Assembly (NCBI GenBank): GCA_951812315.1
Contig: CATOSA010000040.1
Span: 43,082 to 107,081, forward strand
Origin: an uncultured Burkholderiales bacterium
GTDB lineage: Bacteria > Pseudomonadota > Gammaproteobacteria > Burkholderiales > Eutrophovitaceae
DNA length: 64,000 bases
Direction of reading: 5' to 3'
The position numbers and the translations under genes are program-made. Positions 10,237-61,563 of the stretch are shown one piece after another (position 1 is the first letter of the stretch; each line of letters begins with the position of its first letter). The notes under the pieces are model-generated. The model did no database searches and was not told the origin of the DNA. It saw nothing but the letters and a program-made list of their open reading frames with translations.

Positions 10237-11308
10237 TCAGGAAACTGGCGCCGCATAAACACGCCGCCAGGTCGCGCCAAGGCTTCTCACTTCAGCACCG
10301 CCCAGCAAGCCCAGTTGCCTGAGCCTGACATGCAATAAAGGGAGATTGTAATGCGGCACTGCAGGATACAGGTGATGCTCGATATGGTAATTCACGTGAT
10401 GGGGAAACAATACAAACCGCAACACCGGCCCGGCAATCGTCGTACGGGCTGCCTGCAGAGCAGATTCATACCCGGCTGGCGCACCATGCTCGCAAATGGC
10501 TCGAACACGTAATATCGCTATATCGCTTGCAGCACGGTAACGGCCGGAACAATCCAGAGGAGCAGGTACATCGCAATACCTTCCCAGCCGAACAATATCG
10601 CGATACAAACAGGCAGCGCCACCTGAACACAAGCCACCAGCCAGCGATCGTTGCGGGCAGCCTGGCGTAGTGCCGGCAAAGTGTCATCCAGTGGTCGCTG
10701 TGCAACGCCGGTGTTCGCGTTCGCGGCGGGCGAGCCAAGAAAGTAGCGATAGGTTTTCCATGCAGTGAGACCGAGCACATCAGCAACGAGTTTGCGCAAC
10801 AAGTAGGCTTTGCCCCGCGGGTATCCACCGTGCAGGGCGATATCCGGATCCTGATCGCCGTACAGATGGTTGCGGTGCAGGCGATGCACGACGCGATACG
10901 AGCACATCGACAGACCCACCGCCGCGGCCAGCAATCGTCCAACGGTATCGTTCACACGTCTGTTCCTGAACAAACGGTAGTGCGCGGCTTCGTGCGCCAA
11001 CACAAACAAGGCTTGCTGCTGTGTGGCGATAATGAGTATTGCAGGAACAAATACCCACAGCGACGACCATTGCCAATCGCTACCGCCCGCCTTGACGAAT
11101 AGTGTTGTCGCGGCCGCAACCGCGACAATAACCAGCACCGTCTGCGCAACTGCGAAGGCTGATCGCCTATTGCTTAGCGCCGTCAACTCGTGCAGTTCTT
11201 CCGCGGGCAGCAAACGCTCAGTCCACGGAGATCGTCACGAAACTGCGCACCGCCTTGAGCAGTACCGTCGCGCTCAGCGGCGGAAAGATTGGAGCCGGAA
11301 GAAGACAT
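10237..11308 (-). pseudogene. fatty acid desaturase, two frameshifts
   Basis: Membrane di-iron fatty-acid desaturase, about 353 aa if repaired. All three histidine boxes are present: HEAAHYRLF, HRLHRNHLYGDQDPD and, in the shifted frame, HHVNYHIEHHLYP. Hydrophobic segments lie between the boxes. The likely start is ATG 11308 (MSSSGSNLSAAERD...). One missing base near 11219-11221 separates this from ERLLPAEELHEL. A second break at 10511-10526 is an imperfect 8-bp tandem duplication (aatatcgc/tatatcgc); deleting one unit restores VLQAILRVRAICEHGAPAGY and joins the third histidine box. As sequenced, the main ORF ends before that box, so the enzyme should be inactive. Confidence 0.85.
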
Positions 11309-11422: not shown

Positions 11423-11485
11423 ATGGCAATTCTTGAACAAATCCTGGCGGGCTCAGGAGTTAGGCACATTAGTCATCGGATTTAG
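11423..11485 (+). other. possible truncated gene start (MAILEQILAGSG...)
   Basis: A good ribosome site (GGTGGAGGTGACAGC) precedes an ATG that opens MAILEQILAGSG, which resembles the start of YidB/DUF937-type proteins. The frame runs only 20 codons before stopping inside the 13-bp tandem repeat at 11470-11495. It may be the stub of a deleted gene, or chance. It converges with the gene ending at 11482. Confidence 0.3.
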
Positions 11486-11495
11486 TCATCGGATT
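11470..11495. repeat. exact 13-bp tandem duplication
   Basis: TAGTCATCGGATT occurs twice in direct succession (11470-11482 and 11483-11495). It covers the stop codon of the minus-strand gene 11482-11886, so the duplication repeats that gene's last codons downstream of its stop without changing the protein. Slippage or microhomology repair is the likely origin, like the 8-bp duplication in the nearby desaturase. Confidence 0.85.
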
Positions 11496-11886
11496 CGATC
11501 ATCAAGTCTGGCCGGCGGGTGTCTGAGCCGATAACCGCCAGCACTTCTTTCCATATCGCCGCTTGATGTTTCGCGGCGAAGTCAGGCGGCACGTTATAGC
11601 CGTCATAGCCCACGCCAAGCTCTTCCTCCATATCGGGCGCTTCGCCCAACATCGCTGCCGCCTTGTATTCCGACACCGCATCTTCAATCAGCAAATGAAG
11701 GGCTTCGCGATGTTCATCCGCAATTGACTGGGCATTACGGACATTCTGAAACACGGTTGCCGTCAAGTACCAATCCTCAATAACATCTTCGGGCGATGGA
11801 AACTCGTTCGCCGCTTCCGCGAACGGCTCGTCAAAGAGAAAACCCAGCACGTCGTCTACGAAATCCAGCTTCTGTTGCATGTCCAT
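11482..11886 (-). CDS. small acidic protein of unknown function, downstream of C13 peptidase
   Basis: 134-aa protein, strongly acidic (runs such as EAPDMEEELGVGYDGYN and a C-terminal MIESDD), with no signal peptide, membrane segment or family I recognise. It starts 12 nt after the stop of the C13 peptidase half-gene on the same strand, so it should be co-transcribed with the MORN/peptidase gene. An acidic soluble partner beside a protease could be an inhibitor, chaperone or substrate, but nothing in the sequence shows which. The 3' end carries a 13-bp tandem duplication. Confidence 0.75.
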   Translation of the reverse strand: MDMQQKLDFVDDVLGFLFDEPFAEAANEFPSPEDVIEDWYLTATVFQNVRNAQSIADEHREALHLLIEDAVSEYKAAAMLGEAPDMEEELGVGYDGYNVPPDFAAKHQAAIWKEVLAVIGSDTRRPDLMIESDD

Positions 11887-11898
11887 AGCAGCTCGCAG

Positions 11899-12663
11899 TC
11901 AGTTGGCAGACTGCGTAATTTGCTTTGTCCACCAGTTATCGAGATATTTCGCAATTGAATCCGAATTCACCATTTGCGGGAGCGAAAATTCCTCAGTGTC
12001 GACCTCCCCGGCGGACTGCTGGTCGGCGAGCTCACGCTCTCTCACCAGTTTCTCGGCTTTCGCGAACGCTTCCTGGAAAGAACTGCTGCCCGGCAACGCG
12101 TCCTTGAAAAATGCGCGGCCAAAATAGGTGAAATCATTCTCGTCGGCACAACCAAACGACCGGCGATCGTGTCTTGCCGCAGTGATAACAAGTGTGCGCG
12201 AGTCTTTTACTGGATCGATAAACCCACCGGCATAGCACGCAGAAACGACGACGACTTTCCAGCGGATTTTCGAATCGCGCAACATCTCACCCAATCGCGA
12301 GGCTTGCAAGCCGGGCAGGCTCATGCTTTGCTGGCCAAGCGCGAACTCGTGATCCTGCGATCCGTGACTGGTGAGATACAGGAACAGGATGTCCTGGTCG
12401 CGATTCATCTTTTGCGAAATCGCCTGCAATGACTCATCAATACTGGTGAGCGTGGCCATGGGCAACGAATCCACTGTAGTTCGGCTGTTGACCAAAGTTA
12501 GCGTGCAACCTTCTGTTCCGAATCGCTGCGAAAATTGATTGCTTACAAACTCGACTTCGCGCCGGAAGACTTCCTGCGAACCGTCACCGCCGACTGCCAG
12601 CATGTACAAATCAATTGTTTCCGGATCTCCTGCCTTCAGCGAACCGATTGCCTCATCCAAGAA
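11899..12663 (-). CDS. C13 (legumain/caspase-like) peptidase domain, 3' half of a split gene
   Basis: The reading frame from LDEAIGSLKAGDPETIDLYML onward matches bacterial C13-family cysteine peptidases: VFRREVEFVSNQFSQRFG, then DQDILFLYLTSHGSQDHEF with the catalytic His, then WKVVVVSACYAGGFIDP with the catalytic Cys, then SFGCADENDFTYFGRAFF. The family normally cleaves after Asn or Asp. No good start codon lies at the beginning of the homology. Instead, dropping one T from CTTCTTGG (plus strand near 12659-12662) makes the frame continuous with the MORN-repeat ORF (LYNQRRLLDEAIGSLKAG). The two ORFs are therefore almost certainly one gene of about 565 codons. Confidence 0.85.
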   Translation of the reverse strand, partial: FLDEAIGSLKAGDPETIDLYMLAVGGDGSQEVFRREVEFVSNQFSQRFGTEGCTLTLVNSRTTVDSLPMATLTSIDESLQAISQKMNRDQDILFLYLTSHGSQDHEFALGQQSMSLPGLQASRLGEMLRDSKIRWKVVVVSACYAGGFIDPVKDSRTLVITAARHDRRSFGCADENDFTYFGRAFFKDALPGSSSFQEAFAKAEKLVRERELADQQSAGEVDTEEFSLPQMVNSDSIAKYLDNWWTKQITQSAN

Positions 12664-13600
12664 GACGGCGCTGATTGTAAAGCGCGATTTCAGCGTTCTC
12701 GGGACCAACAGAATCTTCACGCTGACCTTCCAGCCGGCCAAAGCTCCATACCCCGCTGTCATGGGTGCGACCGTCTTCATCTGGCGTGGCATAGGTGAGC
12801 GTACCTTGCCCCGCATAAAAGCCGTTGGCAAACTCGCCGACATACTCATCACCATTGGCCTGGCGCAACCGTCCATGCCCGGAGTATCGCCATTGGCTGA
12901 ACCCGCCCTTGTAGTAGGTTCCGTCGACTCCGGTATAACTGCCTTCACCTTGCAGTTGCCCGTCTACGAACTGCCCTTCATAAACGTTGCCGGCCGGATC
13001 GCTATAGCGCGCGGCGCCGTGCATGACCCAGTTCCTGAACTCACCCTCGAAACGACCACCACCGTCGAAAGCGTAAGTGCCTGAACCGGTAAATTCGCCC
13101 TTTTCGAACTCGCCCTCGTAAACCTCCCCGCCGCCATCGTCGTACCGGCCATTGCCGTGAAACTGGCCGTGCTTGAATCCCCCTTCGTATATTGCGCCAC
13201 TGGCCATTTCATAGCGGCCGTTGCCATCGAACCGGTCATTCGCAAACATTCCGGTGTACACAGATCCGTCCTGCAATGCGGTCCGGCCGTGGCCGGACAT
13301 ACGTCCATTACGGAATTCGCCTTCGTAAACGTCTCCCCCGGCCCAGATCCCTTTCCCGGAGTACTGGCCATTTACAAAATCGCCCTCGTAACTGTCGCCG
13401 TTGATCCATTCGATACGCCCGCGCCCGTGCAGTTGCCCGTTAACCAGCGGCCCGAAATAGCGGCCACCGTTTACAGTGACCGCGTTTGGCTCTTGTGCGG
13501 CCTTGCCGTCCCCGTACGATAAAACCGGGCACGCAAGAAGAAAACAAAGCGCATTAAGAGAACAAAAGGTTTTTATTCTGAGTGCCATCGTAATTCGCAT
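12653..13600 (-). CDS. exported MORN-repeat protein, 5' half of the split MORN-C13 peptidase gene
   Basis: About 315 aa from the ATG at 13600 (a second in-frame ATG is at 13588). The first residues form a signal sequence (MALRIKTFCSLNALCFLLAC) that could be a lipoprotein signal (LLAC) or an ordinary one cleaved after LSYG. Ten to eleven MORN repeats of 23 residues follow, e.g. DVYEGEFRNGRMSGHGR and VYEGEFEKGEFTGSGTY. MORN arrays form extended beta-hairpin solenoids that bind lipid or protein. The frame ends LYNQRRLLG-stop, exactly where one base removed would join the C13 peptidase. An envelope-anchored protease with a MORN targeting arm is the likely intact product. Confidence 0.85.
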   Translation of the reverse strand: MRITMALRIKTFCSLNALCFLLACPVLSYGDGKAAQEPNAVTVNGGRYFGPLVNGQLHGRGRIEWINGDSYEGDFVNGQYSGKGIWAGGDVYEGEFRNGRMSGHGRTALQDGSVYTGMFANDRFDGNGRYEMASGAIYEGGFKHGQFHGNGRYDDGGGEVYEGEFEKGEFTGSGTYAFDGGGRFEGEFRNWVMHGAARYSDPAGNVYEGQFVDGQLQGEGSYTGVDGTYYKGGFSQWRYSGHGRLRQANGDEYVGEFANGFYAGQGTLTYATPDEDGRTHDSGVWSFGRLEGQREDSVGPENAEIALYNQRRLLG

Positions 13601-13673
13601 TCTGCAGTTTGTAAGAAATGCGGTTGAAGCCCTTCCGACGCAAACTCCGAGCCCGGAATTAGTGTAGCCAGGT

Positions 13674-13841
13674 AGGGCGCAATTAGCGTAGCGCATTGCG
13701 CCGAATGGATACGGCGCAAAAACGCCAGCCTTCGCGACCAAACACCGGCTCCTTTCCGCCACGCCCAATCGAGGGGACATACACAGTCCTTCACCAATCG
13801 CAGCAAAGCCGGTGCAATGCGCTACGCTTATTGCACCCTAC
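13674..13841. repeat. inverted pair of dispersed palindromic repeats (REP/BIME-like)
   Basis: GGGCGCAATTAGCGTAGCGC...ATTGCGCC (13674-13706) and its near reverse complement CGGTGCAATGCGCTACGCTT...ATTGCACCCTAC (13810-13841) flank about 100 bp. The same pair arrangement recurs at 17437-17602 and single copies at 37364, 38806 and 56235. Each unit can form a stem-loop. It lies between two minus-strand genes. Confidence 0.75.
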
Positions 13842-16506: not shown

Positions 16507-17448
16507 ATGCGTAACAGACCATACGACTTGCCTCCGCTCGACCTGATCGAAGGCTTCGATGCGGCCGCTCGCAACCTCAGCTTTACCAAGGCAGGCGCCG
16601 AGCTGCACCTTACGCAATCAGCCGTCAGCCGCCAGATCAAGGCACTCGAAGAATGGCTGGGCGTGCCGCTATTTGAACGGCGCACCCGGTCGCTTGCCCT
16701 CACCAAACACGGTGAATCCCTGTACAGGACCGTGCCGGACGTGCTGCGAACGATCGAAAATGTCACCCGTGATATCAGGCACGACCAGCTTGCACGCACG
16801 CTTACCGTCACCACCACTGCGGCCTTTGCCTCTCTGTGGCGGATCCCGCGCCTCGCCGGCTACACACGGGATCACCCGCAGGTCGACGTACGCATCTCCA
16901 CGTCGTCCGCGTTCGTCGACCTGGAACGAAGCAACGTGGAGCTCGCAATCCGCTATACCAGTGTCGCACCGCAGGTTCAGGCAACGAAGTTGTTTGAGGA
17001 AGAGGTATTCCCGGTGTGTGCGCCTGCACTGCTCAAAGACCCGGACAGGCCGCTGGCAGAACCGGCTGACCTGCGTCATCACGTTTTGCTCCACTTCGAC
17101 GAACAGCACGACCGGCTGCCATGGCTCGACTGGCCGACATGGCTGGAGGCGGTCGGGCTAAGCGACTTCGTTGCCGCCGGCGCCGTGCGCTTCAACCAGT
17201 ACGATCAAGTGGTGGTTGCGGCCGCCGACGGTCAGGGCATCGCGCTGGGCAGAAGCCCGCTACTGAAGCGAATGCTTCGAGACGGAAAACTGGTGGCACC
17301 GTTCAGTTCGAAATCGGTCGCGCCGCGGGCGTACTATCTGATCACGTCAAAGGCGTCGGAACACAATGCCGATGTGTCGGAATTCGTGGACTGGCTTTTC
17401 CGCGAAGCAGGATGTGACGCCAACGCAGTCACTCGCAGGGCGCAATAA
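16507..17448 (+). CDS. LysR family transcriptional regulator (GcvA-like)
   Basis: 313 aa from ATG 16507 (MRNRPYDLPPLDLIEGFDAA). The N-terminal winged helix-turn-helix is textbook: LSFTKAGAELHLTQSAVSRQIKALEEWLGVPLFERR. The C-terminal LysR substrate domain follows (LTVTTTAAFASLWRIPRLAGY...). The upstream ATG at 16444 in the ORF track is rejected because residues before PPLDLIEGF do not fit the family. It is divergent from the DUF2917 gene and probably regulates it and itself. The effector is unknown. Confidence 0.92.
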   Translation: MRNRPYDLPPLDLIEGFDAAARNLSFTKAGAELHLTQSAVSRQIKALEEWLGVPLFERRTRSLALTKHGESLYRTVPDVLRTIENVTRDIRHDQLARTLTVTTTAAFASLWRIPRLAGYTRDHPQVDVRISTSSAFVDLERSNVELAIRYTSVAPQVQATKLFEEEVFPVCAPALLKDPDRPLAEPADLRHHVLLHFDEQHDRLPWLDWPTWLEAVGLSDFVAAGAVRFNQYDQVVVAAADGQGIALGRSPLLKRMLRDGKLVAPFSSKSVAPRAYYLITSKASEHNADVSEFVDWLFREAGCDANAVTRRAQ

Positions 17449-17602
17449 GCGAAGCGCATTGCGCCGGATGATAAGGTCGCTGAACCCCCGTCATCGAAAC
17501 CCGGCACCGATTCATGCCCGCGAATCCGACCGGGCAAACACGATCAAATCTTCGCCAACCGCAGCGGTTCCGGTGCAATGCGCTGCGCTTATTGCACCCT
17601 AC
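17437..17602. repeat. second inverted pair of REP/BIME-like repeats
   Basis: AGGGCGCAATAAGCGAAGCG...CATTGCGCCGGATG (17437-17470) overlaps the end of the LysR gene. Its near reverse complement CGGTGCAATGCGCTGCGCTT...ATTGCACCCTAC is at 17571-17602. Spacing and flanks (an AACCGCAG/AATCGCAG motif before the right unit) match the pair at 13674-13841, so the ~170-bp composite is itself repeated. It lies between convergent genes, where it may help terminate transcription. Confidence 0.75.
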
Positions 17603-24407: not shown

Positions 24408-24689
24408 ATGGGTCGGACACGCTTTGAGTGATATCCAGGTAAGTATCTGCAGAAACAGGGCATTTCATTCACCGAAGCACAGTATGCCTTCGCTGACTCG
24501 GAACGTGTCATTGCCGAGGATCTGAAACACAGCGATGAGGAGGATCGGTATTACCGCTTTGGCCAAGTTTATCGCGGCGTCCTGACCGTCCGCTTCACGT
24601 ACCGAGGCGGAATCATCAGAATATTTGGCGCCGAATTCTGGCGCAAGGGAAAAGCAATCTATGACCGCGAAAACCAAGTACACAAATGA
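24408..24689 (+). pseudogene. BrnT-like toxin, nonsense mutation at codon 8
   Basis: The frame reads MGRTRFE-stop-YPGKYLQKQGISFTEAQ, then ERVIAEDLKHSDEEDRYYRFG, GVLTVRFTYRGGIIRIF and KAIYDRENQVHK to a stop. This is the BrnT RNase-toxin pattern, in which the N-terminus is normally FEWD: the conserved Trp codon has become TGA. No ATG or GTG start lies downstream before the core, so no toxin should be made. The ORF is absent from the ORF track because of the stop. Its 3' end overlaps the antitoxin by 29 nt, the usual arrangement. Confidence 0.75.
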
Positions 24690-24942
24690 ACGCATGGGAG
24701 AGTATCAGGTTGTCCCGGATTTTCTTCCCTCTCCCGATGAACTTGCATTTCGTGACGAAGGCGTAAAAGTCACGATCTCCCTGAGCAAACGAAGCGTCGA
24801 GTTCTTCAAGTCGCACGCGGCAAAAAACCAGACGCAGTACCAACGAATGATCAGGCAACTGCTCGATGCTTATGTAGACGCGTACGAACAACCTCCGACA
24901 AGTCGCTCATCCAATACCGTCCGCAAGCGGGCTGCCCGATAG
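24661..24942 (+). CDS. CopG/BrnA-like antitoxin
   Basis: 93 aa from ATG 24661 (MTAKTKYTNERMGEYQVVPDF). The core LPSPDELAFRDEGVKVTISLSKRSVEFFKSHAAKNQTQYQRMIRQLLDAY is a ribbon-helix-helix DNA-binding domain of the type paired with BrnT toxins. The start inside the toxin 3' end indicates translational coupling. With the toxin broken at codon 8, this is an orphan antitoxin; it may persist as a repressor or as immunity against other BrnT toxins. Confidence 0.8.
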   Translation: MTAKTKYTNERMGEYQVVPDFLPSPDELAFRDEGVKVTISLSKRSVEFFKSHAAKNQTQYQRMIRQLLDAYVDAYEQPPTSRSSNTVRKRAAR

Positions 24943-24951
24943 GCCGATGGT

Positions 24952-27900
24952 CTAGATGCTCGCCCCCAGCTCCTCGAGCAGCGCCCTCGCTTCTTTCAGA
25001 TCCTTGGTGTCGAAACCTTCGGTGAACCAGTCATATACTGGCTTCAACAGATCGTGCGCTTCCTTGCTTTTGCCATAGGCGAGCAAGGCTGGTCGAAGTT
25101 CGCAGTTCCCACGACTTTGCTTTCTGCTCGCGTGCCCATTCTATTGACGCAAGGAAGTTCTTCTCCGCGCCCTCGAGATCATCCTTCAGTGTGAGCATCC
25201 AGCCTTTGAGGCGCAGGATCTCTGCATAGTGAGCACGTTCCCCAAAGCCGGCACGCTCAATCTGCTCAAGACACTCTTCAATCCGACGCAACGCACGAAC
25301 CAACTCACCGGAATGCGCCATTGCCTCTGCTATAACCGCCCCTCCGTACACATTGGCCTTGCCGCCACTTGCCCGCCAGACCGTCCCACTTTCCGCCAGC
25401 AGTGTGATTCCCTCCGCAAACTTGCCCTCCCTGATTGACACAATGCCAAAACGAATCGGAGCGAGAATGTCAAACAAGACAGGCATGCTGTTCTCCCGGC
25501 CCAGTCGCTGACACTCTTCGGTAAGTTCACGCAGTTCCTCAAGCTCACCGCGAAGTTCGAACAGGTCGGCGCTCTGAATCAGCGCGTAGCCAAGATTGAA
25601 CGGGTGGCCAAGTTGGCGAGAATGCGCTACCGCATCTTCGCCCAGCCGTACCGCACGGTCCGGGTAGCCCAACATCCAGGTGGTTGGTGACGTGTGAACG
25701 CCAACTGCGGTTTTGGGATCGTGATTGAGCAGATTTACGAGATGGCGCTGATCTTCCTCGTCGTAGCGAGACAGTGCCTTCTCACCATGCTCCAGACACT
25801 CGAGAAGTCCACCCATCCAGAAACGACAGACGCAGACAAGCATGTGCCCAGTGACCAACAGGTCGGCATCAGCAGTCGCCTTCGCAATGTCGAGCATTTT
25901 TTCCGCCCATGGCAAGGCCTCGGCCGAACGACCCTGGCTCAGAACATTGAACATCAGTCCGTGGAGAATCGGCAACAGCGCGTCATTGCGCGCAAGCGAT
26001 TCGGCGAGGGCCAATGACGGGTGCAAGCTGTCCCAGACTTCAGAAGCTGGCCACCCTCTAAGCGCGTGTCACGCCGTTCCCAAACGGACCCGCAAGCTCA
26101 ACTCGCTGCCATCCCGATCGCGCGAATGCGGAATCCGGGCAATCAGTCCGAGTCCATGGTCGAGATGGGCAATGGTTTCTGTTAAGGCCATCCGCTTCAG
26201 TGCTAACTCGCCGGCCTTCAGCCACAGCGGAATTGCGCCTCCACAATCGTTCGCAACTGTGAGGTGATGCGCAAGCACTTCGGGTTCGGTGCTCTTTACG
26301 TTCGGGAAGCGCGCTTCGATTGCCGCTGCGATCTTGCCGTGCAACTCCTGCCGCTTGCTCTTGAGCAGTGAATCGTAGGCTGCGTCTTGCACTAGCGCGT
26401 GCTTGAATGTGTAGGTTGCGTCAGGTGGCCGACCTCTCCGAAACGCCAGGCCCGATTCCGTGAGCTGGGCAAGCGCATCGTCAAGTTGTGCTTGCGGCAA
26501 TGGCGACACATCTCCAATCACCTCATAGCTGAACTCCCGCCCGATGGCCGCACCAATCTGCGCAATCTCCTTAACGGGCATGAATCGATCCAGCCGCGAC
26601 ATTAGTGAGTCTCTTAGAGTTGCCGGAATTGTGACGCTGTGGTGGGCGCCACCAGCGTATTCGTAACGGTTGCCGACTTTCCTGATCTCGCCCGATTCGA
26701 GAACGGCTATGGTGAGTTCCTCGACGAACAGGGGCACTCCGTCCGTTCTGGATAGGATCTGTTCTAGCAGATCCCCAGGCAGCGCCGTCTTTGCGGTAAT
26801 TCTTGAAACCATTGCGCTGCTTTGAGCGCGCGTGAGCTTGGCAAGGTTCAGACTGATAACGTGGCCATGATCGGACCAGCGATTCTCAAACTCCGGACGG
26901 TGAGTGATTACGATCAACAGCGGAATGGTCCTCACCCGGTCAATCAGCAAGTCAAGCACTTCAAGCGTGGTTGGATCGGCCCAGTGCGCATCCTCGAAAA
27001 TCATCACACAGGGCTGCTTGTTTGAGGCGGCCTCAATAAGATCGATCAGCGCGCGCAGCGTCTCGTCTTTGTACTTTTCCGGAGGCATCGTTATTGCCCC
27101 ATAGCGATCGTCGCAAAGAACGGAAAGCATCGAGGCGATGAAACGCACGTCACCTAGTGGTCGTTCGCAGTGGCCGACGATCAGCGCTTCAAGCTTGTCA
27201 AGCTTCAAGTCCGGAGTTTCGTCGCGCCTCAACTGCAACGCCCGCTCAAAACGGTCAGTAATCGGCCAGAACGCACTGTTGATATAGTAGGGCGAGCATT
27301 GATAACGAAGTGTCTGCGCACCTCGCCCTTCGAGCCTTTCTCGCAGCGCGCTCAGCATGCGGCTCTTGCCAATGCCGGGTTCTCCAGACAGGAGCACAAC
27401 CTGACCTTCTCCGTCTTGCGAGAGTTGCCAGCGCTCCATGAGAAGGCCAAGTTCCTGCTCGCGGCCAACAAGAGGGGTGAGATCTTCGCTGTGCGCAGCT
27501 TCGAAGCGACTGGCCACTTCGCTAACACCCGATACGTTATAGGCATGAGTTGGCCGGGCAATGCCTTTGAGCGTCAGCTCGCCCAAGTCCTCGTAGTTAA
27601 AGCTGCCGCCCGCCAGGCGTTGAACGCGCTCGCTCACCACGATTGTGTTCACTTGCGCGATGTTCTGTAGTCGCGATGCGAGATTCATTGTCTCGCCTAC
27701 TGCGCCTTTTTCCGCTGAGGCAACCACGACCAAACCGGTGGCGATACCGATGCGTACTTGAAGCTGGCCAATGTCAAGTACATCCAGATTGGCAAATGCA
27801 TCAATAATGTCCAGCCCCGCCCGGACAGCGCGCTCGGCTTCACCTTCGTGTGCAAGTGGATAACCGAAGAACGCGACGACGCCATCTCCAAGACGCTGGA

Positions 27901-28286
27901 AAACGTACCCTTCGTAGCGGGTGATAGATGCCGCGCAGGTGTCTTCGTACACCTGAACGATCGATTGCAATTCTTCCGGATCGAGACGCGACGCTAACTC
28001 GGTGAAACCCACCATGTCGCAGAACAACACCGTGAGTTGGCGGCGTTCGCCTTCAGGAACTGAGGATGCTGCCGCCTGAAGGTACTGATTCACTCTCGGG
28101 TTCTGCGGCCAGCCTTGAAATGGCACGCTTCAGGCGCAAGCGGTGGCCCGCGATCGTTACGCCGATGTCCTTGAGGACTTGATCATCGACCTGCGGCAAC
28201 AATGACACGTCGATCTCATTGGCCTCGAACACATCGGCATATTGGCCGAGGTCCAGGCTTTGAAGCCATTCCCGGATGCTGATCAC
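24952..28286 (-). pseudogene. SAM domain / class III cyclase / ATPase / TPR gene, decayed
   Basis: One ~1110-codon gene broken in three places. It opens with a SAM domain (MISIREWLQSLDLGQYADVFEAN). A frameshift near 28070-28085 separates this from the cyclase (LTVLFCDMVGFTELAS, RLGDGVVAFFG), the ATPase (GEPGIGKSRMLSALRERL, MIFEDAHWADP) and helical repeats. An in-frame TGA at 26069-26071 replaces a Trp (RLGTA-stop-HALRGWPASEVWDSLHP); the frame continues unchanged beyond it. A second frameshift or small deletion near 25075-25085 (SLARLWQ) puts the tail KEAHDLLKPVYDWFTEGFDT in another frame, ending at 24952-24954. As it stands only disconnected pieces could be made. Confidence 0.88.
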
Positions 28287-28297
28287 AAATGCAGCTC

Positions 28298-28540
28298 CTA
28301 GAGTAAAGCTTTTGCTTCTTTCAGGTCCTTGCTATTAAATCCTTCTGTAAACCAGTTGTAAACCGGAGCAAGTAACTCGTTCGCTTGCTTGTGCTTGCCT
28401 TGCCCTTGCCATAATCGGGCAAGCGACGTCGCGCGGCGCAGTTCCCGTCTTCGACTCTTGAGCAACGAGTCATAGGCGACGTCCTGAAGCAATGCATGCT
28501 TGAACCCGTAGGTCGCGTCCAGCGGTGTGCCCAGTCTATT
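28298..28540 (-). pseudogene. deletion remnant of another cyclase/TPR paralog
   Basis: A short frame joins TPLDATYGFKHALLQDVAYD...KSRRRELR, which belongs to the middle of the cyclase/ATPase proteins, directly to ATSLARLWQGQGKHKQANELL and VYNWFTEGFNSKDLKEAKALL, which belongs at the C-terminus. About 450 codons between are missing. The join falls at an ELR motif that occurs in both places in the paralogs, suggesting deletion by short homology. It ends 12 nt before the start of the SAM-cyclase pseudogene, so the two were tandem copies. Confidence 0.8.
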
Positions 28541-44071: not shown

Positions 44072-44955
44072 CTAGTCGGAAAAGCTACCGGGCCAGCCTT
44101 CCAGCAATGAGGCGTTATGCAACCGCGAGAGCGCCTTGTTCAGAATCAATGTCAGGTGCTCGCCGCTCACTTCTTTCAATGCCTCGCCTTTCGTCTTGAT
44201 CACCATGGCGCCGCTTGCGAAAGCAGAACGTAAGTTGTCAATCATCTTTTCCCGATCGTGTTCGCCATCTAGTAATCGGATCAGGTGACGCTCGGTGTCA
44301 TCGAGCATGATCTGTTCGTGCCTGAAGTTGCTGACCATATTGCCAAGGCGCTCCTGAGCCCGGACGAGACTTGACGCGAACGGTTTTTCGCTGACGGGTG
44401 ATAGCGGCTTGGGCGGATGCAACCATGCGTGCACGAGCCCGGCGCCCAGAAACATCATCATTGACGAGGCGAGCGAGGTCCCGCTTGCTGACGCCATCTC
44501 TTTTCCACCACCCGTTTGGCGTGGCTGCTTATCAGCCGGCAAGGCATTCAATGCAGCGGCGTGCAAGTCATCGAATGACATTGTGTCGGGCCACTAGCTT
44601 GCGAGTTGTTTAACCGCTGCCTTGACAACAGGCTCCGCGCTCGAAATCTTGTGCCCCCCCGATCTTGAAGCGGACGGGATCATCACTTTCCAGGTCAATC
44701 TGATCCGCGCGCAGTGCGGTTGTCATTGCAAAGTGAAACTTTCGCATGACATCGGCGTGCAAATTCCTCTCGAGCGCGACGTCATCATGGCACAGGAGGG
44801 TACGGCGGAACGTGTGATTGTGCAGGAAGTCCATGTACTGCTCCTGCTGAATCATCGGCAAACCGGTTAACGCGTCTTGTGCATTCTTTGGCAGAAACTT
44901 CGCCAGCATGCGCGAAAACTCCACGTCCCCCAGGTATTGCAAACCGGCAGTCCGC
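44072..44955 (-). pseudogene. 5'-truncated tandem copy of the methyltransferase
   Basis: Closely matches the last ~285 residues of the neighbouring methyltransferase, starting at AGLQYLGDVEFSRMLAKFLP; the whole catalytic domain is absent. It has an extra base in the C7 run at 44654-44660 (minus-strand FKIGG then shift to HKISSAEPVVK) and an in-frame TAG in place of the parental Gln (QLAS-stop-WPDTMSF for QLARQWPGTLSF). The copy breaks off about 60 bp before the start of the OYE gene. It has diverged from the intact gene by many substitutions, so the duplication is old. Confidence 0.9.
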
Positions 44956-45016
44956 AAATGACCGATTGGTCTTGTTAGAATCCGGTCGCCAACAAGTACA
45001 ACAACCTGTCGAGAAA

Positions 45017-46102
45017 ATGACCAGCCAACTGTTTACGCCGATTTCCCTGAACCAGATTGAACTTCCCAACCGTATTGTCGTCTCGCCAATGTGTCAGTAC
45101 ATGGCGAACGATGGTTCTGCGACCGACTGGCATCTGATGCATTGCGGCCAGATGTCCATGGGCGCAGGTGCGCTGCTGATACTTGAGGCGACCCACGTCG
45201 CACCGGAAGGGCGGATTTCACACCGCTGCCTCGGTCTTTATAGCGATGAGAACGAGGCAGCGATCAAGCGCGTGGTTGATTTTTGCAAAGCGCATGGCGT
45301 TGCAAAAATGGGCATTCAGCTTGCGCATGCCGGGCGCAAGGGTTCGGCACATACGCCGTTCGAGAGCGTCAGTCCGCTAGGCCCCGACGAGGAACCGTGG
45401 ACAACCCTCGCTCCGTCAGCGCTGGCGTTCGCTCCGGATTGGCCGGTGCCACAGGCAATGTCCGCCGATGAAATGAAAAACGTAAAACAACAATTCGTGG
45501 ATTCCGCGAAGCGCGCCGTTCGCGTCGGGTTTGACGTTGTTGAATTGCACATGGCGCATGGATACTTGCTGCACGAGTTTGTTTCGGCTATTTCCAACCA
45601 TCGTCAGGACGACTATGGCGGATCAGCTGAAAAGCGGATGCGCTATCCACTCGAGGTGTTCGAGGCTGTACGCGAAGTCGTGCCGCACGATCGGGCGCTG
45701 GGGGCGCGTATCTCGGCGACGGATTGGGTCGATGGCGGCATAACGCCGGACGAAATGGTTTCTCTGGCGAGAAGCTTGAAGTCGCTTGGTTGCGATTTCG
45801 TCGACGTCACGTCCGGTCAGCTCGACCCGCGCCAGAAGATCCCGTTCGCACCCGGCTTCAACGTTCCGTTTACCCGGCGTGTTCGCGAAGAAGTCGGATT
45901 GACAACAATGGCGGTCGGCATGATTACCAAACCGCAGCAGGCCGAAGAGATCGTCGCCAGTGGCGGCGCCGATCTGGTCGCTCTGGCAAGAGGCGTCATG
46001 GATGACCCGCGCTGGGCCTGGCATGCTGCACGTGAACTTGGCGCCGAGACCGGTTACCCGATGAACTATCAGCGTTGCCATCCGTCAGTATGGAGGGCAT
46101 GA
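45017..46102 (+). CDS. NADH:flavin oxidoreductase / Old Yellow Enzyme (YqjM-like)
   Basis: 361 aa from ATG 45017 (MTSQLFTPISLNQIELPNRI); the ORF-track ATG at 44879 lies in methyltransferase debris. FMN TIM barrel with VVSPMCQYMA (YqjM-type Cys near the flavin), IQLAHAGRK (substrate His), VELHMAHGYLLHEFVSAISN and YGGSAEKRMRYPLEVFEAV, and the phosphate motif near ALARGVMDDPRWAWHAA. Reduces activated C=C bonds. Followed 44 nt later by the cation-chloride-type permease. Confidence 0.93.
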   Translation: MTSQLFTPISLNQIELPNRIVVSPMCQYMANDGSATDWHLMHCGQMSMGAGALLILEATHVAPEGRISHRCLGLYSDENEAAIKRVVDFCKAHGVAKMGIQLAHAGRKGSAHTPFESVSPLGPDEEPWTTLAPSALAFAPDWPVPQAMSADEMKNVKQQFVDSAKRAVRVGFDVVELHMAHGYLLHEFVSAISNHRQDDYGGSAEKRMRYPLEVFEAVREVVPHDRALGARISATDWVDGGITPDEMVSLARSLKSLGCDFVDVTSGQLDPRQKIPFAPGFNVPFTRRVREEVGLTTMAVGMITKPQQAEEIVASGGADLVALARGVMDDPRWAWHAARELGAETGYPMNYQRCHPSVWRA

Positions 46103-51225: not shown

Positions 51226-51484
51226 ATGCGAGGGAGTTACTTTGGTTTGGTCCTAACTCTCTACAAGCGCTTCGCGGATGTTCGTTATGGATAGCGAGCA
51301 CCTGCGTGTAGTAACCGGTTCGGAAACCTTTGGAATACTCGTCCATGCCATATCTGTAGGAGTCAGATAGCTCTGTCCCGTTCTGTTGCGATACTTCGCC
51401 GTCTACGTAACCCTGAGCGCGCTTGAGCGTCCAGCACATTTCTTCTGCGAGTTCGTTTCTCTTATCTTTCAAAGAATCCTTCAT
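51224..51484 (-). CDS. small protein of unknown function in the junction island
   Basis: 86 aa from ATG 51484 (AAGGGGGG upstream). Sequence MKDSLKDKRNELAEEMCWTL then RAQGYVDGEVSQQNGTELSD: charged, no signal peptide, no motif I recognise. The ORF-track form starting at 51595 extends into the antiporter region and is not supported. It lies between two 5'-truncated transporter genes and ends at the palindrome, so it probably arrived with the rearrangement. It could be a cassette-type accessory gene. Confidence 0.55.
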   Translation of the reverse strand: MKDSLKDKRNELAEEMCWTLKRAQGYVDGEVSQQNGTELSDSYRYGMDEYSKGFRTGYYTQVLAIHNEHPRSACRELGPNQSNSLA

Positions 51485-51541
51485 GTTGCCCCCCTTGCGG
51501 ATTGTTTGCGTTGCCCAACCATTCAACGCAAAAAACGTTCG

Positions 51542-52600
51542 CGCCTGGGCGCATTTCTCGCCGGCATGCTGCTCGCAGACTCGGAATACCGTCACGAACT
51601 CGAAGCGAGCATCGAACCTTTCAAGGGCTTGCTACTTGGATTGATCGTCAGTGAACCGGTGCGCATTGCAGCGATCGTTGCCGGCTTGATGCTGACAAAA
51701 GCCGCAGTCCTGTTCGTCGTCGCACGGATAGCGGGGCAAAGCGCGGTTACCGCGCGCTCACTGGCAGCAACCCTGTCGCAGGGTGGCGAATTTGCATTTG
51801 TACTGTTCGCGATCGCGGTCAACGGCGGCATTGTGCAAGCGCAACTGGCAGGCACACTCGTAATCGCCGTCACCATTTCAATGGCGTTGACCCCATTAGC
51901 CATGGCGGTCGACGATGCATTACGCAGGCGCAATACCGCAAAAGCCAAACGAGAGTACGAGGAAATTGAAGCCGACGACGCGGCAATCATCATTGCCGGT
52001 TTCGGACGGGTCGGCCACATGGTCGCGCGCACGCTTACTGCGCGTGGCATCCACTTTACGGCACTTGACATTAGTAGTGAACAGATCGATGTGGTGCGGC
52101 GTTTTGGCAACAACAGGGCATATTACGGCGACGCGTCGCGACTGGACATGCTGCGCGCAGCGGGTGCGCAAGATGCCAGAATATTCGTGCTGGCCATCGA
52201 CGATATCGAGGCATCTGTCCACACTGCCGAGATGGTGAAGAAGCATTTTCCGCATCTGAAGATTCTTGCCAGAGTGCGTAATCGCTTTCATGCCCATCGG
52301 CTGATGGATATCGGCGTGGATTACCTGATACGCAAAACGCTCGGCTCGGCACTGGAGCTGGCAGAAAACGTACTCCTTGAAACCGGAATGTCATCCTGGG
52401 AAGCTCGCGATACGGTCGGCACGTTCCGGAAACATGATGAGCAAACCATGTTGCGCCAGCATGCGGTCTACCACGACGAGTCACAACTTATTCAAACCTC
52501 ACGCGAAGCGGCACTGGAACTGCAGGATATTATGGAGTCCGACCGCGAATCACAGACCCTGGCCGATGAGGCGGTGTTCTCTCCGGGTGATGTCAGATAG
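51542..52600 (+). pseudogene. Kef-type K+/H+ antiporter, 5' truncated and internally deleted
   Basis: Homology begins abruptly at RLGAFLAGMLLADSEYRHELE, about residue 250 of a normal KefB/KefC. The following FFIAVGMS-type membrane segment is missing (FKGLLLGL runs straight into IVSEPVRIAAIVAGL), an apparent in-frame deletion of ~45 bp. The rest is normal: two or three helices, then the RCK/TrkA-N domain (AAIIIAGFGRVGHMVARTLTARG) and KILARVRNRFHAHRLMDIGVDYLIR. Upstream codons in the ORF track (MRYFAVYVTLSALERPA...) are the antisense of the small gene and are not part of the protein. Confidence 0.85.
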
Positions 52601-52619
52601 CTTTGAGCGCTCGGAATAG

Positions 52620-52695
52620 CGCCGAACCGGCGATGCCGACTATATTGCCGGGCATATTCAATGTAATTCATCTGTAAGGAAATGCCGGTTCGGCG
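52620..52695. repeat. 12-bp inverted repeat after the antiporter remnant
   Basis: CGCCGAACCGGC (52620-52631) and GCCGGTTCGGCG (52684-52695) are perfect complements with a 52-nt spacer. It lies between the antiporter stop and the ECF sigma gene. The spacer is too long for a typical terminator; a dispersed repeat or a paired protein-binding site is possible. Confidence 0.5.
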
Positions 52696-52833
52696 GTTCT
52701 GGTTCTCAAGAGGCTGGAAAAGTCGCTGTCCGTATTCGGGGCATGCCCGGAGGCGGGCGTCGCCACCGAGGGTCAGCGCGGGCTTACAAGGCCACCTACG
52801 TCCGCACATGAAGGTAACGCAGCGCAGACTTGT

Positions 52834-53346
52834 ATGAAGCAACACAGCTACGAAATGATTGTGCGGGCGTACTCATCGGATCTTTTCCGATTTGCGTACT
52901 CGATGTGCCGCAATCGATGGCAAGCCGAGGACCTTGTCCAGGAGACGTTTGCCGCTGCATGGCGGGCGCGCGATTCGTTGCGAGACGAGTCAGCGGCGAA
53001 AGCATGGCTGTTTTCGATCTTGCGCAACGAGCATGCCCGCATATATCAGCGCAAGCGAGTAGACATTGCGGATATCGAGATCGATGATCTTCCAGCGACA
53101 ACGTTCTCCGGTCACGAAAGAGTGGAACTGGTGGACGCTGTGAATACACTTCCTGAGCATTTTCGTGAACCGTTGTTATTGCAGATTCTGGGAGGCTTCA
53201 GCGGCCAGGAGATCGCCGAAACGCTGGGAATCAGCGAGCAGAACGTCATGACCCGATTGACGCGGGCACGCCAGGCCTTGCAGCGCGCCACTGGTTCACA
53301 ATCAGCCATCGAAAAAACCGCGTTTCCCAATGCAAGGCGTCGCTGA
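52834..53346 (+). CDS. ECF RNA polymerase sigma factor of the Buf locus
   Basis: 170 aa. Region 2 (LFRFAYSMCRNRWQAEDLVQETFAAAWRARD) and region 4 (LPEHFREPLLLQILGGFSGQEIAETLGISEQNVMTRLTRARQAL) are both clear. It heads a five-gene rightward run (sigma, anti-sigma, bufA, bufB, bufC). The stop is one base before the anti-sigma ATG. In related loci such sigma factors turn on the Buf genes under metal stress, and that role is inferred here. No promoter motif common to the sigma and bufA upstream regions could be picked out by eye. Confidence 0.92.
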   Translation: MKQHSYEMIVRAYSSDLFRFAYSMCRNRWQAEDLVQETFAAAWRARDSLRDESAAKAWLFSILRNEHARIYQRKRVDIADIEIDDLPATTFSGHERVELVDAVNTLPEHFREPLLLQILGGFSGQEIAETLGISEQNVMTRLTRARQALQRATGSQSAIEKTAFPNARRR

Positions 53347-53347
53347 C

Positions 53348-54034
53348 ATGGATTGCCTCGCTTACCGTCGTATCAAGCTGGCAACACCGCAGGATGCCAG
53401 CCCGGAAATCATTGCGCACGCGCGTGAATGCCGCGAATGTGCTGCGTTTACGCGTCAGCTCGAGGCGTTCGAACAGGATATGCATACGACCCTGCATATT
53501 CCCGTTCCCGAGGGACTTGCGGAAAAAATCATCCTGCGTCGTGGCAAGCCGCATTGGTTAAAGGCCAGCTGGCTTCCCGTGGCTGCGGCCATCGTCATCA
53601 CGCTGGCTGCTCTCGTGGCGTTGAACACATTGCCGTCGCGCGAAAGTTTTTCGCAACAATTCGTTGATCACGTACTGTCAGAGCCAGATGTCATCGCGGC
53701 AAACGCAGATGTCGAGGCGGATGCATTGGAACTCGCATTCGCCGACTTCGGCGGAAAGTTACGGAGCGATATCGGCGATGTGAAGTATATCGGCAAATGC
53801 CAGATTGGCGGCGTCGCCTCGACCCATGTGCAAATATCTACACTTGCCGGCGATGCCGCCCTGCTCCTCAGGCCAGGACGCAGCGCAGAAATTGACACTC
53901 CCGAGGTCCATGAAGGCCATGCAGTTGTTGTCGTGCCTGTCCCGCGTGGCAGCATTGCGATCGTCGCGGCCACACCGCGGCAGGCATCGCAAATTCGGTC
54001 ACTGGTTCTGGCGAGCTCGGATTTTCATGGCTAG
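53348..54034 (+). CDS. membrane anti-sigma factor with zinc-binding ZAS motif
   Basis: 228 aa from ATG 53348. The N-terminal cytoplasmic part has the zinc anti-sigma signature HARECRECAAF (HxxxCxxC). One membrane helix follows (WLPVAAAIVITLAALVALNTL), then a ~130-residue periplasmic domain ending at VLASSDFHG. It should hold the ECF sigma factor inactive at the membrane until a periplasmic or redox/metal signal releases it. The Cys pair makes a thiol-reactive metal a plausible trigger. It begins one base after the sigma stop. Confidence 0.88.
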   Translation: MDCLAYRRIKLATPQDASPEIIAHARECRECAAFTRQLEAFEQDMHTTLHIPVPEGLAEKIILRRGKPHWLKASWLPVAAAIVITLAALVALNTLPSRESFSQQFVDHVLSEPDVIAANADVEADALELAFADFGGKLRSDIGDVKYIGKCQIGGVASTHVQISTLAGDAALLLRPGRSAEIDTPEVHEGHAVVVVPVPRGSIAIVAATPRQASQIRSLVLASSDFHG

Positions 54035-54193
54035 CACCGAAATTCATGCAACCGGTCTTGTAAGGATTACGTAGATTACCGTGTCCCCTTATTCGGGCGG
54101 ACAACTCTGGCCGTCACCTGGGCACCTGCCGGACCTGGATGTTCGATGGAGCCCCAGGGCACAATCAAGAACACCTTTTAAAGGAGAGACTTT

Positions 54194-54451
54194 ATGAAAA
54201 CGACTGATCTTATTGTTCATTCAGCTATCGTTGGTCTGCTGGCTGTCGGTATGAGCGGAAATGCGCTCGCCGCCAAGAAGGGCATGGAGAAATGCGCCGG
54301 TATCGTCAAAGCCGGAATGAATGACTGCGGCACGGCCAAGCACTCCTGCGCCGGCCAGGGCACCGTCTCCGGCGCTGCAGACGAGTGGGTATATGTCGCC
54401 AAAGGATCTTGCGACAAGATCATCGGCGGCACGCTATTCGTAAAGAAGTAA
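54194..54451 (+). CDS. bufA: BufA1-type bufferin precursor (DUF2282)
   Basis: 85-aa RiPP precursor. A signal sequence (VHSAIVGLLAVGMSGNALA) precedes a short mature peptide with four cysteines in the family arrangement: EKCAGIV, NDCGTAKHSCAGQG and GSCDKIIGG. In characterised bufferins, cysteines are converted by the BufB/BufC enzyme to copper-binding heterocycles and the product is exported. AAAGGAG precedes the ATG. It is 25 nt upstream of bufB. The 159-bp gap after the anti-sigma gene could contain a separate promoter. Confidence 0.92.
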   Translation: MKTTDLIVHSAIVGLLAVGMSGNALAAKKGMEKCAGIVKAGMNDCGTAKHSCAGQGTVSGAADEWVYVAKGSCDKIIGGTLFVKK

Positions 54452-54476
54452 GTTTCGTTCTAGGCTGGCGCTCTCC

Positions 54477-55319
54477 ATGAATCCGATATCAAAGCCAGTT
54501 ACCGGTATCGGCTGGCGAGCGCCGCATTACCGGGAGTTGTTACGCGACCGCCCACCATTGGGCTTTCTCGAAGTCCACAGCGAAAACTTCTTTGCAAACG
54601 GTGGTCAGACGCTCGATTTTCTCGATCAGGCGCAGCGTCTCTACCCGATCAGCCTGCATGGTGTGGGCCTGGCACTTGGCTCCGCCGATCCGCTGGACGA
54701 CACGCACATCAAACGCTTGCGCGATCTGATTGCAAGAACGCAACCGGTATTTGTTTCAGAACATCTGTGCTGGGGTTCGATCGCGGGGCGGCACTTGAAC
54801 GAACTGCTGCCGCTACCGTATACCGAGGAGGCGCTGGATCACATCTGTGCGCGAATAGATGAGGTGCAGGATCGCCTCGGCCGCACAATAATGATCGAGA
54901 ACGTGTCGAGCTACGTGCGTTTCACCCACTCAACGATAACCGAGCAGGAGTTCATCGCGCAGGTGTGCCAGCGCACCGGTTGCGACATATTGCTCGATGT
55001 CAACAACGTGTATGTCAGTTCCGTCAATCACGAGTTCGACCCGGTCGCTTTCATCGATGCCCTGCCGGCCGGCGCCTGCAAGGAGATTCATCTGGCCGGC
55101 TACGACGCGCATGAGGAAGACGACTCCTGTCTGATCGATACGCATGGCCGCCACGTGCAGTCGCCGGTGTGGGATTTGTTCCGGCACACCGTCAAGCGCC
55201 TCGGACCACGGCCAACGCTTGTCGAATGGGATGTTGCCATTCCCGAATTGCCGGTACTGCTGAACGAGGCGGCCATGGCGGCCGAAATACTCAATGACGA
55301 ACAAGCCGTCGCTGCGTGA
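54477..55319 (+). CDS. bufB: BufB, multinuclear non-heme iron modification enzyme (DUF692)
   Basis: 280-aa TIM-barrel enzyme of the DUF692/MNIO family. Opening TGIGWRAPHYRELLRDRPPLGFLEVHSENFF, then YPISLHGVGLALGSADPLD (metal His), FVSEHLCW, IENVSSYVRF, CDILLDVNNVYVSSVNH and IHLAGYDAHE supply the usual His/Asp/Glu/Asn iron ligands. The family uses two or three iron ions and O2 to convert precursor Cys to thiooxazole or oxazolone-type groups. Its 3' end overlaps bufC by 26 nt, so the pair is translationally coupled. Confidence 0.95.
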   Translation: MNPISKPVTGIGWRAPHYRELLRDRPPLGFLEVHSENFFANGGQTLDFLDQAQRLYPISLHGVGLALGSADPLDDTHIKRLRDLIARTQPVFVSEHLCWGSIAGRHLNELLPLPYTEEALDHICARIDEVQDRLGRTIMIENVSSYVRFTHSTITEQEFIAQVCQRTGCDILLDVNNVYVSSVNHEFDPVAFIDALPAGACKEIHLAGYDAHEEDDSCLIDTHGRHVQSPVWDLFRHTVKRLGPRPTLVEWDVAIPELPVLLNEAAMAAEILNDEQAVAA

Positions 55320-56091
55320 CATTCAGCACGCGTTCGCTACCTCGATATTTGGTGACGAGAGTGCTGTGTCCGGGATGCTGGAAACTGGGAAACAGCGATT
55401 CGGGATCTACCAAAACTCGGTTGTCGAAAACTACCGCCAGGCACTGACCTCCATTTTTCCTGTAACCGGACGACTCGTCGGCGAGCAGTTTTTCACACAG
55501 GCTGCAACGCAATTCGCACACGACACCCCGTCCTCGAGCGGTGATCTTGCCAACTACGGAGACGCTTTCCCGGCGTTTCTTGAAACGTATCGACCGGCGC
55601 GCGATCTGGCCTACCTACCAGATGTCGCCCGGCTCGAGTGGATCTGGCACGAGACTTTCAACGCTAGTGATTCACAACCGCTCGACCTCGACAAACTCGC
55701 GACAATAGCGCCTGCAGATTACGGTCGACTCGCGTTCGAACTACAAGCCGGCTATCGTTCCCTGCAAACGCCCTACCCGGTCGACCGCATCTGGCAAGTC
55801 AATCAGCCCGAACATGACGATCCGGAGCTGGTTCATCTCGATAGCGAGCCAAGGTACTTGCTGATATACCGGTTCGACTTCGAAGTGCGCATCGCGAACG
55901 TAAGCCGCGGTGTGCACGCGCTAGCTCAAGCCTTCGCCCATCGACAGACATTGACAGACGCGACGCAGTCGGCATTGGAAGCAGAACCGGACCTGGGGAT
56001 CGATTCTGCAGTGCAATGGCTTGTCGGAGAGCGAATCATTGCCGGCTTTGCGTTGGACGGCGCGCCTGAAAGCAACGAGCAGGACTCCTGA
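55294..56091 (+). CDS. bufC: BufC partner protein (DUF2063)
   Basis: 265 aa. The N-terminal DUF2063 domain starts SLRDIQHAFATSIFGDESAV and contains RFGIYQNSVVENYRQALTSIFPVTGRLVG, which in MNIO systems recognises the precursor and docks it on the enzyme. The C-terminal half is a mixed alpha/beta region (LLIYRFDFEVRIANVSRG). It starts inside bufB. The run ends here; no DoxX-like BufD follows. Confidence 0.92.
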   Translation: MTNKPSLRDIQHAFATSIFGDESAVSGMLETGKQRFGIYQNSVVENYRQALTSIFPVTGRLVGEQFFTQAATQFAHDTPSSSGDLANYGDAFPAFLETYRPARDLAYLPDVARLEWIWHETFNASDSQPLDLDKLATIAPADYGRLAFELQAGYRSLQTPYPVDRIWQVNQPEHDDPELVHLDSEPRYLLIYRFDFEVRIANVSRGVHALAQAFAHRQTLTDATQSALEAEPDLGIDSAVQWLVGERIIAGFALDGAPESNEQDS

Positions 56092-56797
56092 CAAGAACGG
56101 TACTTACTCCATCGCAATTTTCCACGGCCAAGGCTATCGGTCCGCAACTGCCGCTACAAGTAGTTTCCATGCATCGCAGCGAGACGTTGGGCGCACCAAA
56201 CTATGACCAGTTCAAGGTCACATCGGCTCCCGTACAACGCAATGCGCCACGCTTGTTGGGCGCTACCCGCGGCTTCAAACGTTGCATGCTGCCCTACTAC
56301 TATCCTCGCTGACCCACCGCTATCACCCCCCCCTTCTGAGCCGCCGAGTAACGCAGAAGTGGCAGGGGCTTTCGGCGAGGACTGTCTGAGCGCGCAGTTT
56401 TTGCGCGCGAGTTCCGCAGCCGCCTGTCGCTTCGAGTAACGCAGGGAACCCCGAAGGGCGGTTCAGTGGGGTGCCCTTCTCTTTGGTTACTTTCTCTTGG
56501 GCACGCAAGAGAAAGTAACTAGCCGCCGGGCTACCCCCGGCATGCCTGCTACCGCAGCAACGCCAAGTACAAACCACTACCAACGACGATAACCATGCCG
56601 ATCAGTGCGTGGTCGTCGGGTAAGTCACCGAACACGGACAAACCCTGAAGTCATCGACGGAGGCGGATCATCGCAAACGCTCCGGGCGATGCCAGCGCAC
56701 GGAGCGTTCAATTCTCCGTTTGGCCATAACTACGCGTTACAATTCGACACTTCGGTTCCCCGACCAACAGGGCTCGGACCCTTTACGGAGAAGTGCC
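56092..56797. other. 706-bp repeat-rich intergenic region
   Basis: No gene seen. It contains a REP-like unit (CAACGCAATGCGCCACGCTT...GTTGGGCGCTAC, 56235-56266). A 14-bp perfect inverted repeat GTTACTTTCTCTTG / CAAGAGAAAGTAAC lies at 56486-56519 with a 6-nt loop. Its flanks (GGGTGCCCTTCTCTTTG before, GCCGCCGGGCTACCCCCGGC after) resemble a hairpin repeat common between genes in Xanthomonadales-type genomes. Both may serve as transcription stops after bufC. ORFs of 60-86 codons here lack any signature. Confidence 0.6.
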
Positions 56798-57349: not shown

Positions 57350-57476
57350 TGCAGCGCCTGGCCGGCTTCGCGCACAAACAGTTCCGGCCATCCGGCACGC
57401 ACCTGCACCAGGCCGGCGATAGAAATATGGCCGGCCGAATCGCATATTCAAGAACCCTCACAGTGGAATAGACTCA

Positions 57477-58739: not shown

Positions 58740-58750
58740 GAACAAGTATC

Positions 58751-59340: not shown

Positions 59341-59460
59341 ACTACTGCGTGTCGAGGTTCCACATCTGACGCCCGAGCTGACCGCTTATCACTGACCAGT
59401 ATCAGTTTTAGCGTTTGCCGATACGAATTTCCCAATTCAAATTCTTCGAGGAACATACCG

Positions 59461-60246: not shown

Positions 60247-60331
60247 ACACAGACGGACCGGGAACGCAAAGCGCGAACTCGCGCCGGGACATGGTGCGCG
60301 AACTCGCAGCGGGAAATTGTGCGGATCAAGC

Positions 60332-61381: not shown

Positions 61382-61563
61382 GCTATCTAGCGTAGTGCTA
61401 AGTTGTCAGACTAATCCGGGCGTAATGCTTGTCCGGAACAGCAAATCAGTGCCAAAGAGTCGACCACACCAAATTGACTGAACCAGGCAACCTTGTAGAG
61501 CGTATCAGATTGCGTGTGCCGTGTTCCTTGACGCGGCCCTTGACGACTTGGCCGTCACGGACA

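What the first reader, a model, noticed from the sequence alone, without database searches (positions are those of the whole stretch)
11482..13600. MORN-repeat / C13 caspase-like protease with an acidic partner gene
One frame correction merges a signal peptide or lipoprotein anchor, ten to eleven MORN repeats and a C13 peptidase with intact His and Cys into a single envelope protein. A strongly acidic 134-aa protein of no known family follows 12 nt later. A membrane-targeted legumain-like protease with a dedicated soluble partner could be a regulated proteolysis, toxin-type or self-destruct module. This is the best candidate in the window for an undescribed protein pair.
Basis: partly seen in the sequence, partly recalled or inferred. 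Interest (0 to 1): 0.7.

Follow-up and report, generated by a model that had tools for sequence, protein, structure and literature searches.

The report
Frame-split MORN-repeat C13 envelope peptidase
This is one more copy of a widespread but uncharacterised bacterial cell-envelope protein, a MORN-repeat rod joined to a legumain-like protease, whose gene is split by a frame break here (probably a sequence error); the acidic gene beside it is a separate, genus-specific gene and not its regular partner.

Summary
On the minus strand a signal sequence, ten clear MORN repeats plus a degenerate one, and a Peptidase_C13 domain with intact His and Cys lie in two frames that meet at about 12653-12662; a 134-aa acidic ORF (pI 4.05) follows 12 nt later. 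The fusion is real but not new: of 63 C13 relatives examined, 37 carry 6-12 MORN repeats in one unbroken frame, including a Pseudomonas aeruginosa protein annotated "peptidase C13", and they form one supported clade. A model of an intact homologue shows a MORN rod, a long helix and a legumain fold. At least three other genes in the window are also split between frames, so the break is probably a sequence error.

The "dedicated partner" reading fails. The acidic gene is absent from all 65 other C13 loci. Among 399 genomes of the order it occurs only here and in two genus-mates, which have no C13 gene and carry it beside an AdoMet-decarboxylase-like gene. Toxin, defence and self-destruct readings have no support.

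Most likely function: a periplasmic or lipid-anchored, MORN-scaffolded cysteine endopeptidase for envelope maintenance. I found no functional study of a bacterial MORN-C13 protein. Low-to-moderate interest.

The parts
13487..13600 (-). Start (ATG at 13600 or 13588) and N-terminal signal sequence, with an ambiguous lipobox-like LLAC
   Evidence: Translation MALRIKTFCSLNALCFLLACPVLSYG and start candidates; homologues begin with signal peptides or, in Pseudomonas, a lipobox
12700..13486 (-). Ten MORN repeats of about 23 residues plus a degenerate eleventh
   Evidence: PF02493 E 6.4e-29; repeat positions and local HMM count of 10
12653..12662 (-). Frame break between the MORN frame and the C13 frame
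   Evidence: Three-frame translation against single-frame homologues
11899..12660 (-). Peptidase_C13 (legumain-like) domain; catalytic His is residue 99 and Cys residue 142 of the translated stretch 12660-11902
   Evidence: PF01650 E 3.6e-26; dyad invariant in alignment A2; aligned to human legumain by sequence
11482..11886 (-). Acidic 134-aa ORF, a genus-restricted neighbour and not a conserved partner
   Evidence: Homologues only in G003 and G001, which lack C13; absent from 65 C13 loci

Best explanation
The locus encodes one exported protein: a signal sequence, a rod of 10-11 MORN repeats, a long helix and a C13 cysteine peptidase of the legumain fold. It belongs to a MORN-C13 family of Beta- and Gammaproteobacteria. 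I infer that it sits in the periplasm, free or lipid-anchored, that the MORN rod dimerises or docks onto partner proteins, and that this holds the peptidase at the envelope, where it cuts (or transfers) envelope proteins during envelope maintenance. Shown here: the fusion, the fold of a homologue, the intact dyad and the signal sequence. Inferred: periplasmic location, dimerisation, activity and role. The frame break is most likely an error in the assembled sequence. The acidic gene is an independent neighbour.
For: 37 of 63 C13 relatives have 6-12 MORN repeats in the same open frame. One MORN clade, support 99/96, with the window inside. Model of L036 with mean pLDDT 89.8; Foldseek matches MORN1 at E 6.5e-23 and legumain at E 1.3e-9. 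Signal peptides or lipoboxes in homologues. MORN repeats act as protein-protein and dimerisation modules (PMC7725318). The related TM-type A. baumannii gene abrp affects membrane permeability (PMC8003822, PMC11615727). Other frame-split genes in the same window favour sequence error.
Against: No assay of any MORN-C13 protein was found. The N-terminal third of the C13 profile is not matched, so legumain's Asn specificity cannot be assumed. Abrp is of the TM type, not the MORN type, and the reviews disagree on the direction of its permeability effect. The relative placement of the two domains in the model is uncertain (pTM 0.61).
Confidence: 0.6

Rival explanations
1. The frame break is in the organism: this copy is a pseudogene or a gene in early decay that would yield only an exported MORN rod without protease.
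For: The frame break is plainly in the assembled sequence. Genus-mates G001-G003 have no C13 gene at all, so loss in the genus is plausible.
Against: Both halves are otherwise open and keep conserved residues. Unrelated genes in the same 64 kb are split in the same way, as expected from indel errors.
Confidence: 0.25
2. MORN-C13 protease and acidic protein form a dedicated enzyme-partner (inhibitor or substrate) pair in this species.
For: Same strand, 12 nt apart, so co-transcription is possible.
Against: Acidic gene absent from 65 other C13 loci and conserved in two genus-mates without C13, next to an AdoMet_dc-like gene. It has no visible signal sequence, whereas the protease is exported.
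Confidence: 0.05
3. A caspase-like cell-suicide or anti-phage module.
For: The C13 and caspase families share a clan (own knowledge); weak match to NCBIfam caspase_w_EACC1, 37.8 bits.
Against: That score is far below the curated cut-off of 140. No PADLOC hit. Homologues start with signal peptides. No conserved effector or NTPase neighbour.
Confidence: 0.04
4. Programmed frameshifting makes both a MORN-only protein and the full fusion.
For: The break is a single frame step at one point.
Against: MORN-type homologues are all in one frame and need no frameshift; no conserved slippery site was seen.
Confidence: 0.02

Closest known systems
Pseudomonas aeruginosa MORN-C13 protein annotated 'peptidase C13' (579 aa, WIK44125.1; identified as PA4016 from neighbouring genes by memory)
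   Same: MORN repeats (E 1.1e-35) plus C13 (E 1.2e-39) in one frame, lipobox at the N-terminus; same MORN clade
   Different: About 43% identity in C13; intact frame; neighbours are oxidoreductase, ubiX and mpl genes; no acidic gene
Acinetobacter baumannii peptidase C13 family protein (QCP22175.1; Abrp-like)
   Same: Homologous C13 domain, 40% identity, dyad kept
   Different: Several transmembrane segments instead of signal plus MORN; outside the MORN clade. That it is Abrp itself was not verified
Mammalian and plant legumain (asparaginyl endopeptidase)
   Same: Same fold by Foldseek (4awb, E 1.3e-9) and same His/Cys motifs by sequence
   Different: About 15-17% identity over the structural match; the N-terminal third of the C13 profile is not matched; no MORN; specificity unknown
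MORN1 proteins of Toxoplasma, Plasmodium and Trypanosoma (6t6q, 6t4d, 6t4r)
   Same: The MORN rod superposes well, target TM-score 0.83-0.91
   Different: Repeats only, no peptidase; eukaryotic and not exported to a periplasm

Membership tests
Peptidase family C13 (PF01650) | Profile score above the curated cut-off | tested here: met
   92.7 bits against a cut-off of 22.8, profile positions 104-240 of 258
Peptidase family C13 (PF01650) | Catalytic His and Cys in HGS and ACxSG-type motifs | tested here: met
   H99 and C142 invariant in A2, aligned to legumain
Peptidase family C13 (PF01650) | Peptidase or transamidase activity | not testable with these tools
   Needs purified protein
MORN-repeat proteins (PF02493) | Tandem MORN repeats forming a beta rod | tested here: met
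   98.5 bits, 8 stretches; 10 repeats; homologue model matches MORN1
MORN-C13 fusion family | Signal, MORN and C13 in one open frame | tested here: inconclusive
   All parts present in order, but split by a frame break in the window; homologues are continuous
NCBIfam caspase, EACC1-associated type (NF047832) | Score above the curated cut-off | tested here: not met
   37.8 bits against 140
Known anti-phage defence systems (PADLOC-DB) | Match to a defence protein model | tested here: not met
   No hit for any of the three ORFs at E up to 1
Two-gene module of protease and acidic partner | Acidic gene conserved beside the protease gene | tested here: not met
   0 of 65 C13 loci; acidic gene without C13 in G001 and G003

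The most novel reading that the evidence does not exclude
MORN-C13 proteins are MORN-scaffolded periplasmic proteases or transpeptidases, activated by dimerisation or docking, that process specific envelope proteins: an undescribed legumain-type processing route in Beta- and Gammaproteobacteria including P. aeruginosa.
Probability: 0.3. Interest if true: 0.6.

Novelty: new member of a known kind. Interest (0 to 1): 0.25.

Why it matters
MORN-C13 proteins are widespread, conserved and present in well-studied bacteria, yet I found no paper on their function in the held library; an exported legumain-like protease would be worth a biochemical look. This locus adds one frame-split copy and removes the acidic protein as a candidate dedicated partner.

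Tried and rejected
Dedicated acidic partner: rejected by distribution. Defence system: no PADLOC hit and NCBIfam score below cut-off. Phage or plasmid origin of the acidic gene: no hits in phages, plasmids or viral contigs. Solved structures for the acidic protein: nothing significant. Conserved neighbours of MORN-C13: only within close relatives; RND-type efflux genes near five loci were not tested against a background rate. Programmed frameshift: homologues need none. The single-sequence model of the window's C13 domain was poor (pLDDT 43) and was not used. Literature searches for MORN with C13 or legumain in bacteria gave nothing direct. No complex prediction of the pair was possible with the tools.

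Full report
Observation. An ORF at 13780..12653 carries a signal-like segment and MORN repeats (PF02493, E 6.4e-29). A second ORF ending at 11899 carries Peptidase_C13 (PF01650, E 3.6e-26). A 134-aa ORF at 11482-11886 has no match in Pfam, NCBIfam, PADLOC or PHROGs. The translation shows ten regular MORN repeats and one degenerate repeat. The acidic protein has pI 4.05 and 31 acidic against 8 basic residues. The likely start is 13600 or 13588; further upstream the ORF runs through an intergenic palindromic element.

The fusion is real. A search of 100 relatives and a scan of the species-genome collection gave 61 usable C13 homologues, and two plasmid records added one each from P. aeruginosa and A. 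baumannii. Of these 63, 37 have 6-12 MORN repeats in one unbroken frame, 22 have several predicted transmembrane segments instead, and 4 have only a short N-terminal anchor (transmembrane segments by a simple hydropathy threshold). In a maximum-likelihood tree of the C13 domain all MORN-type rows fall in one clade (99/96) with three short-anchor rows nested inside. One fusion followed by a few losses of the repeats is the simplest reading. The window lies inside this clade next to Rhodocyclaceae MAGs (93/94). The bootstrap had not fully settled and many inner forks are open.

The frame break. MORN-type homologues read straight through the junction (ALYxQxxLLDxAL). In the window the two halves of this motif are in different frames that meet at about 12653-12662. 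Both sides are otherwise open and conserved. The neighbouring fatty-acid desaturase is broken in the same manner (PF00487 positions 2-173 in one ORF and 175-242 in the next). A protein with SAM, guanylate cyclase, AAA and TPR domains is spread over ORFs between 28331 and 24955, and a PKMT-type protein over 45032-44075. That these last two are single genes is inferred from usual domain architecture. Several breaks in unrelated genes within 64 kb point to indel errors in the assembly. No reads were available, so a pseudogene remains possible.

Fold. An AlphaFold2 model of the intact Collimonas homologue L036, from a 26-sequence alignment, has mean pLDDT 89.8 and pTM 0.61, so the placement of the domains relative to each other is uncertain. 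It shows a signal helix, a MORN beta rod, a 27-residue helix and an alpha/beta peptidase domain. Foldseek matches MORN1 structures (E 6.5e-23) and legumain (E 1.3e-9). The His and Cys align with legumain by sequence and are invariant among the aligned MORN-type relatives. Only positions 104-240 of the C13 profile match, so legumain-like Asn specificity should not be assumed.

The acidic gene. Among 399 genomes of the order it is found only in the window's own genome and in two genus-mates, G003 (63% identity) and G001 (48% over 58 residues, after which the similarity stops). Neither mate has a C13 gene. In both, the acidic gene lies next to an AdoMet-decarboxylase-like gene (PF02675, E 3.2e-7 for the G003 copy; the G001 copy judged by sequence likeness) and near a gene that looks like a solute-binding protein. 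No acidic homologue occurs in any of 65 C13 loci; flanks were about 3.4 to 10.8 kb. In G003 the acidic gene lies about 8.5 kb from a gene whose counterpart is about 10.4 kb away in the window. So the acidic gene belongs to this neighbourhood independently of the C13 gene, which was gained here or lost in the mates. It is not a dedicated partner.

Mechanism. Most MORN-type homologues begin with a signal peptide and the Pseudomonas ones with a lipobox (read by eye). MORN1 proteins dimerise and act as protein-protein interaction modules, and no membrane binding was found for the trypanosome one (PMC7725318). The best-supported model is therefore a MORN-scaffolded, periplasmic or lipid-anchored C13 endopeptidase or transpeptidase acting on envelope proteins. 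The only related phenotype comes from the A. baumannii C13 gene abrp, whose loss alters membrane permeability and antibiotic susceptibility; reviews disagree on the direction of the permeability change (PMC8003822, PMC11615727). A P. [quoted passage not shown] Location, activity and role remain inferred.

Novelty. The architecture is already in public genomes under generic names; I found no functional study in the held library. The window copy is a new member of that kind.

Noticed in passing
window 10237-11213 (-): Fatty-acid desaturase split between two frames: PF00487 positions 2-173 in one ORF and 175-242 in the next.
   Followed up: partly
window 24955-28331 (-): SAM domain, guanylate cyclase, AAA_16 and TPR domains spread over three or four adjacent ORFs in different frames, probably one gene with several frame breaks.
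   Followed up: partly
window 44075-45032 (-): MethyTransf_Reg and PKMT_2nd domains in two adjacent ORFs in different frames, probably one split methyltransferase gene.
   Followed up: no
window 13682-13831 and 17445-17592; also 37371, 38811, 56239: Palindromic repeat ATAAGCGTAGCGCATTGC; two pairs of inverted copies bound elements of about 150 bp, REP- or MITE-like. 7 matches with up to 3 mismatches against 0.07 expected.
   Followed up: partly
window 51371-62988 against L080:1371-6130 (G003): A compact gene row of genus-mate G003 (Na/H exchanger-TrkA, DUF6806, AlgH-like, SDR, di-haem oxidoreductase) is spread out in the window, with MbnB/TglH/ChrH, DUF2063, DUF3379 and beta-lactamase-family genes in between.
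   Followed up: partly
window 24432-24939 (+): BrnT/BrnA-type toxin-antitoxin pair; the BrnA match is below its cut-off.
   Followed up: no
C13 relatives L006-L019, L055, L056, L060-L064, L089: A group of C13 proteins has several predicted transmembrane segments in place of signal plus MORN; no Pfam family covered this part in the four scanned, L007, L010, L055 and L089.
   Followed up: partly
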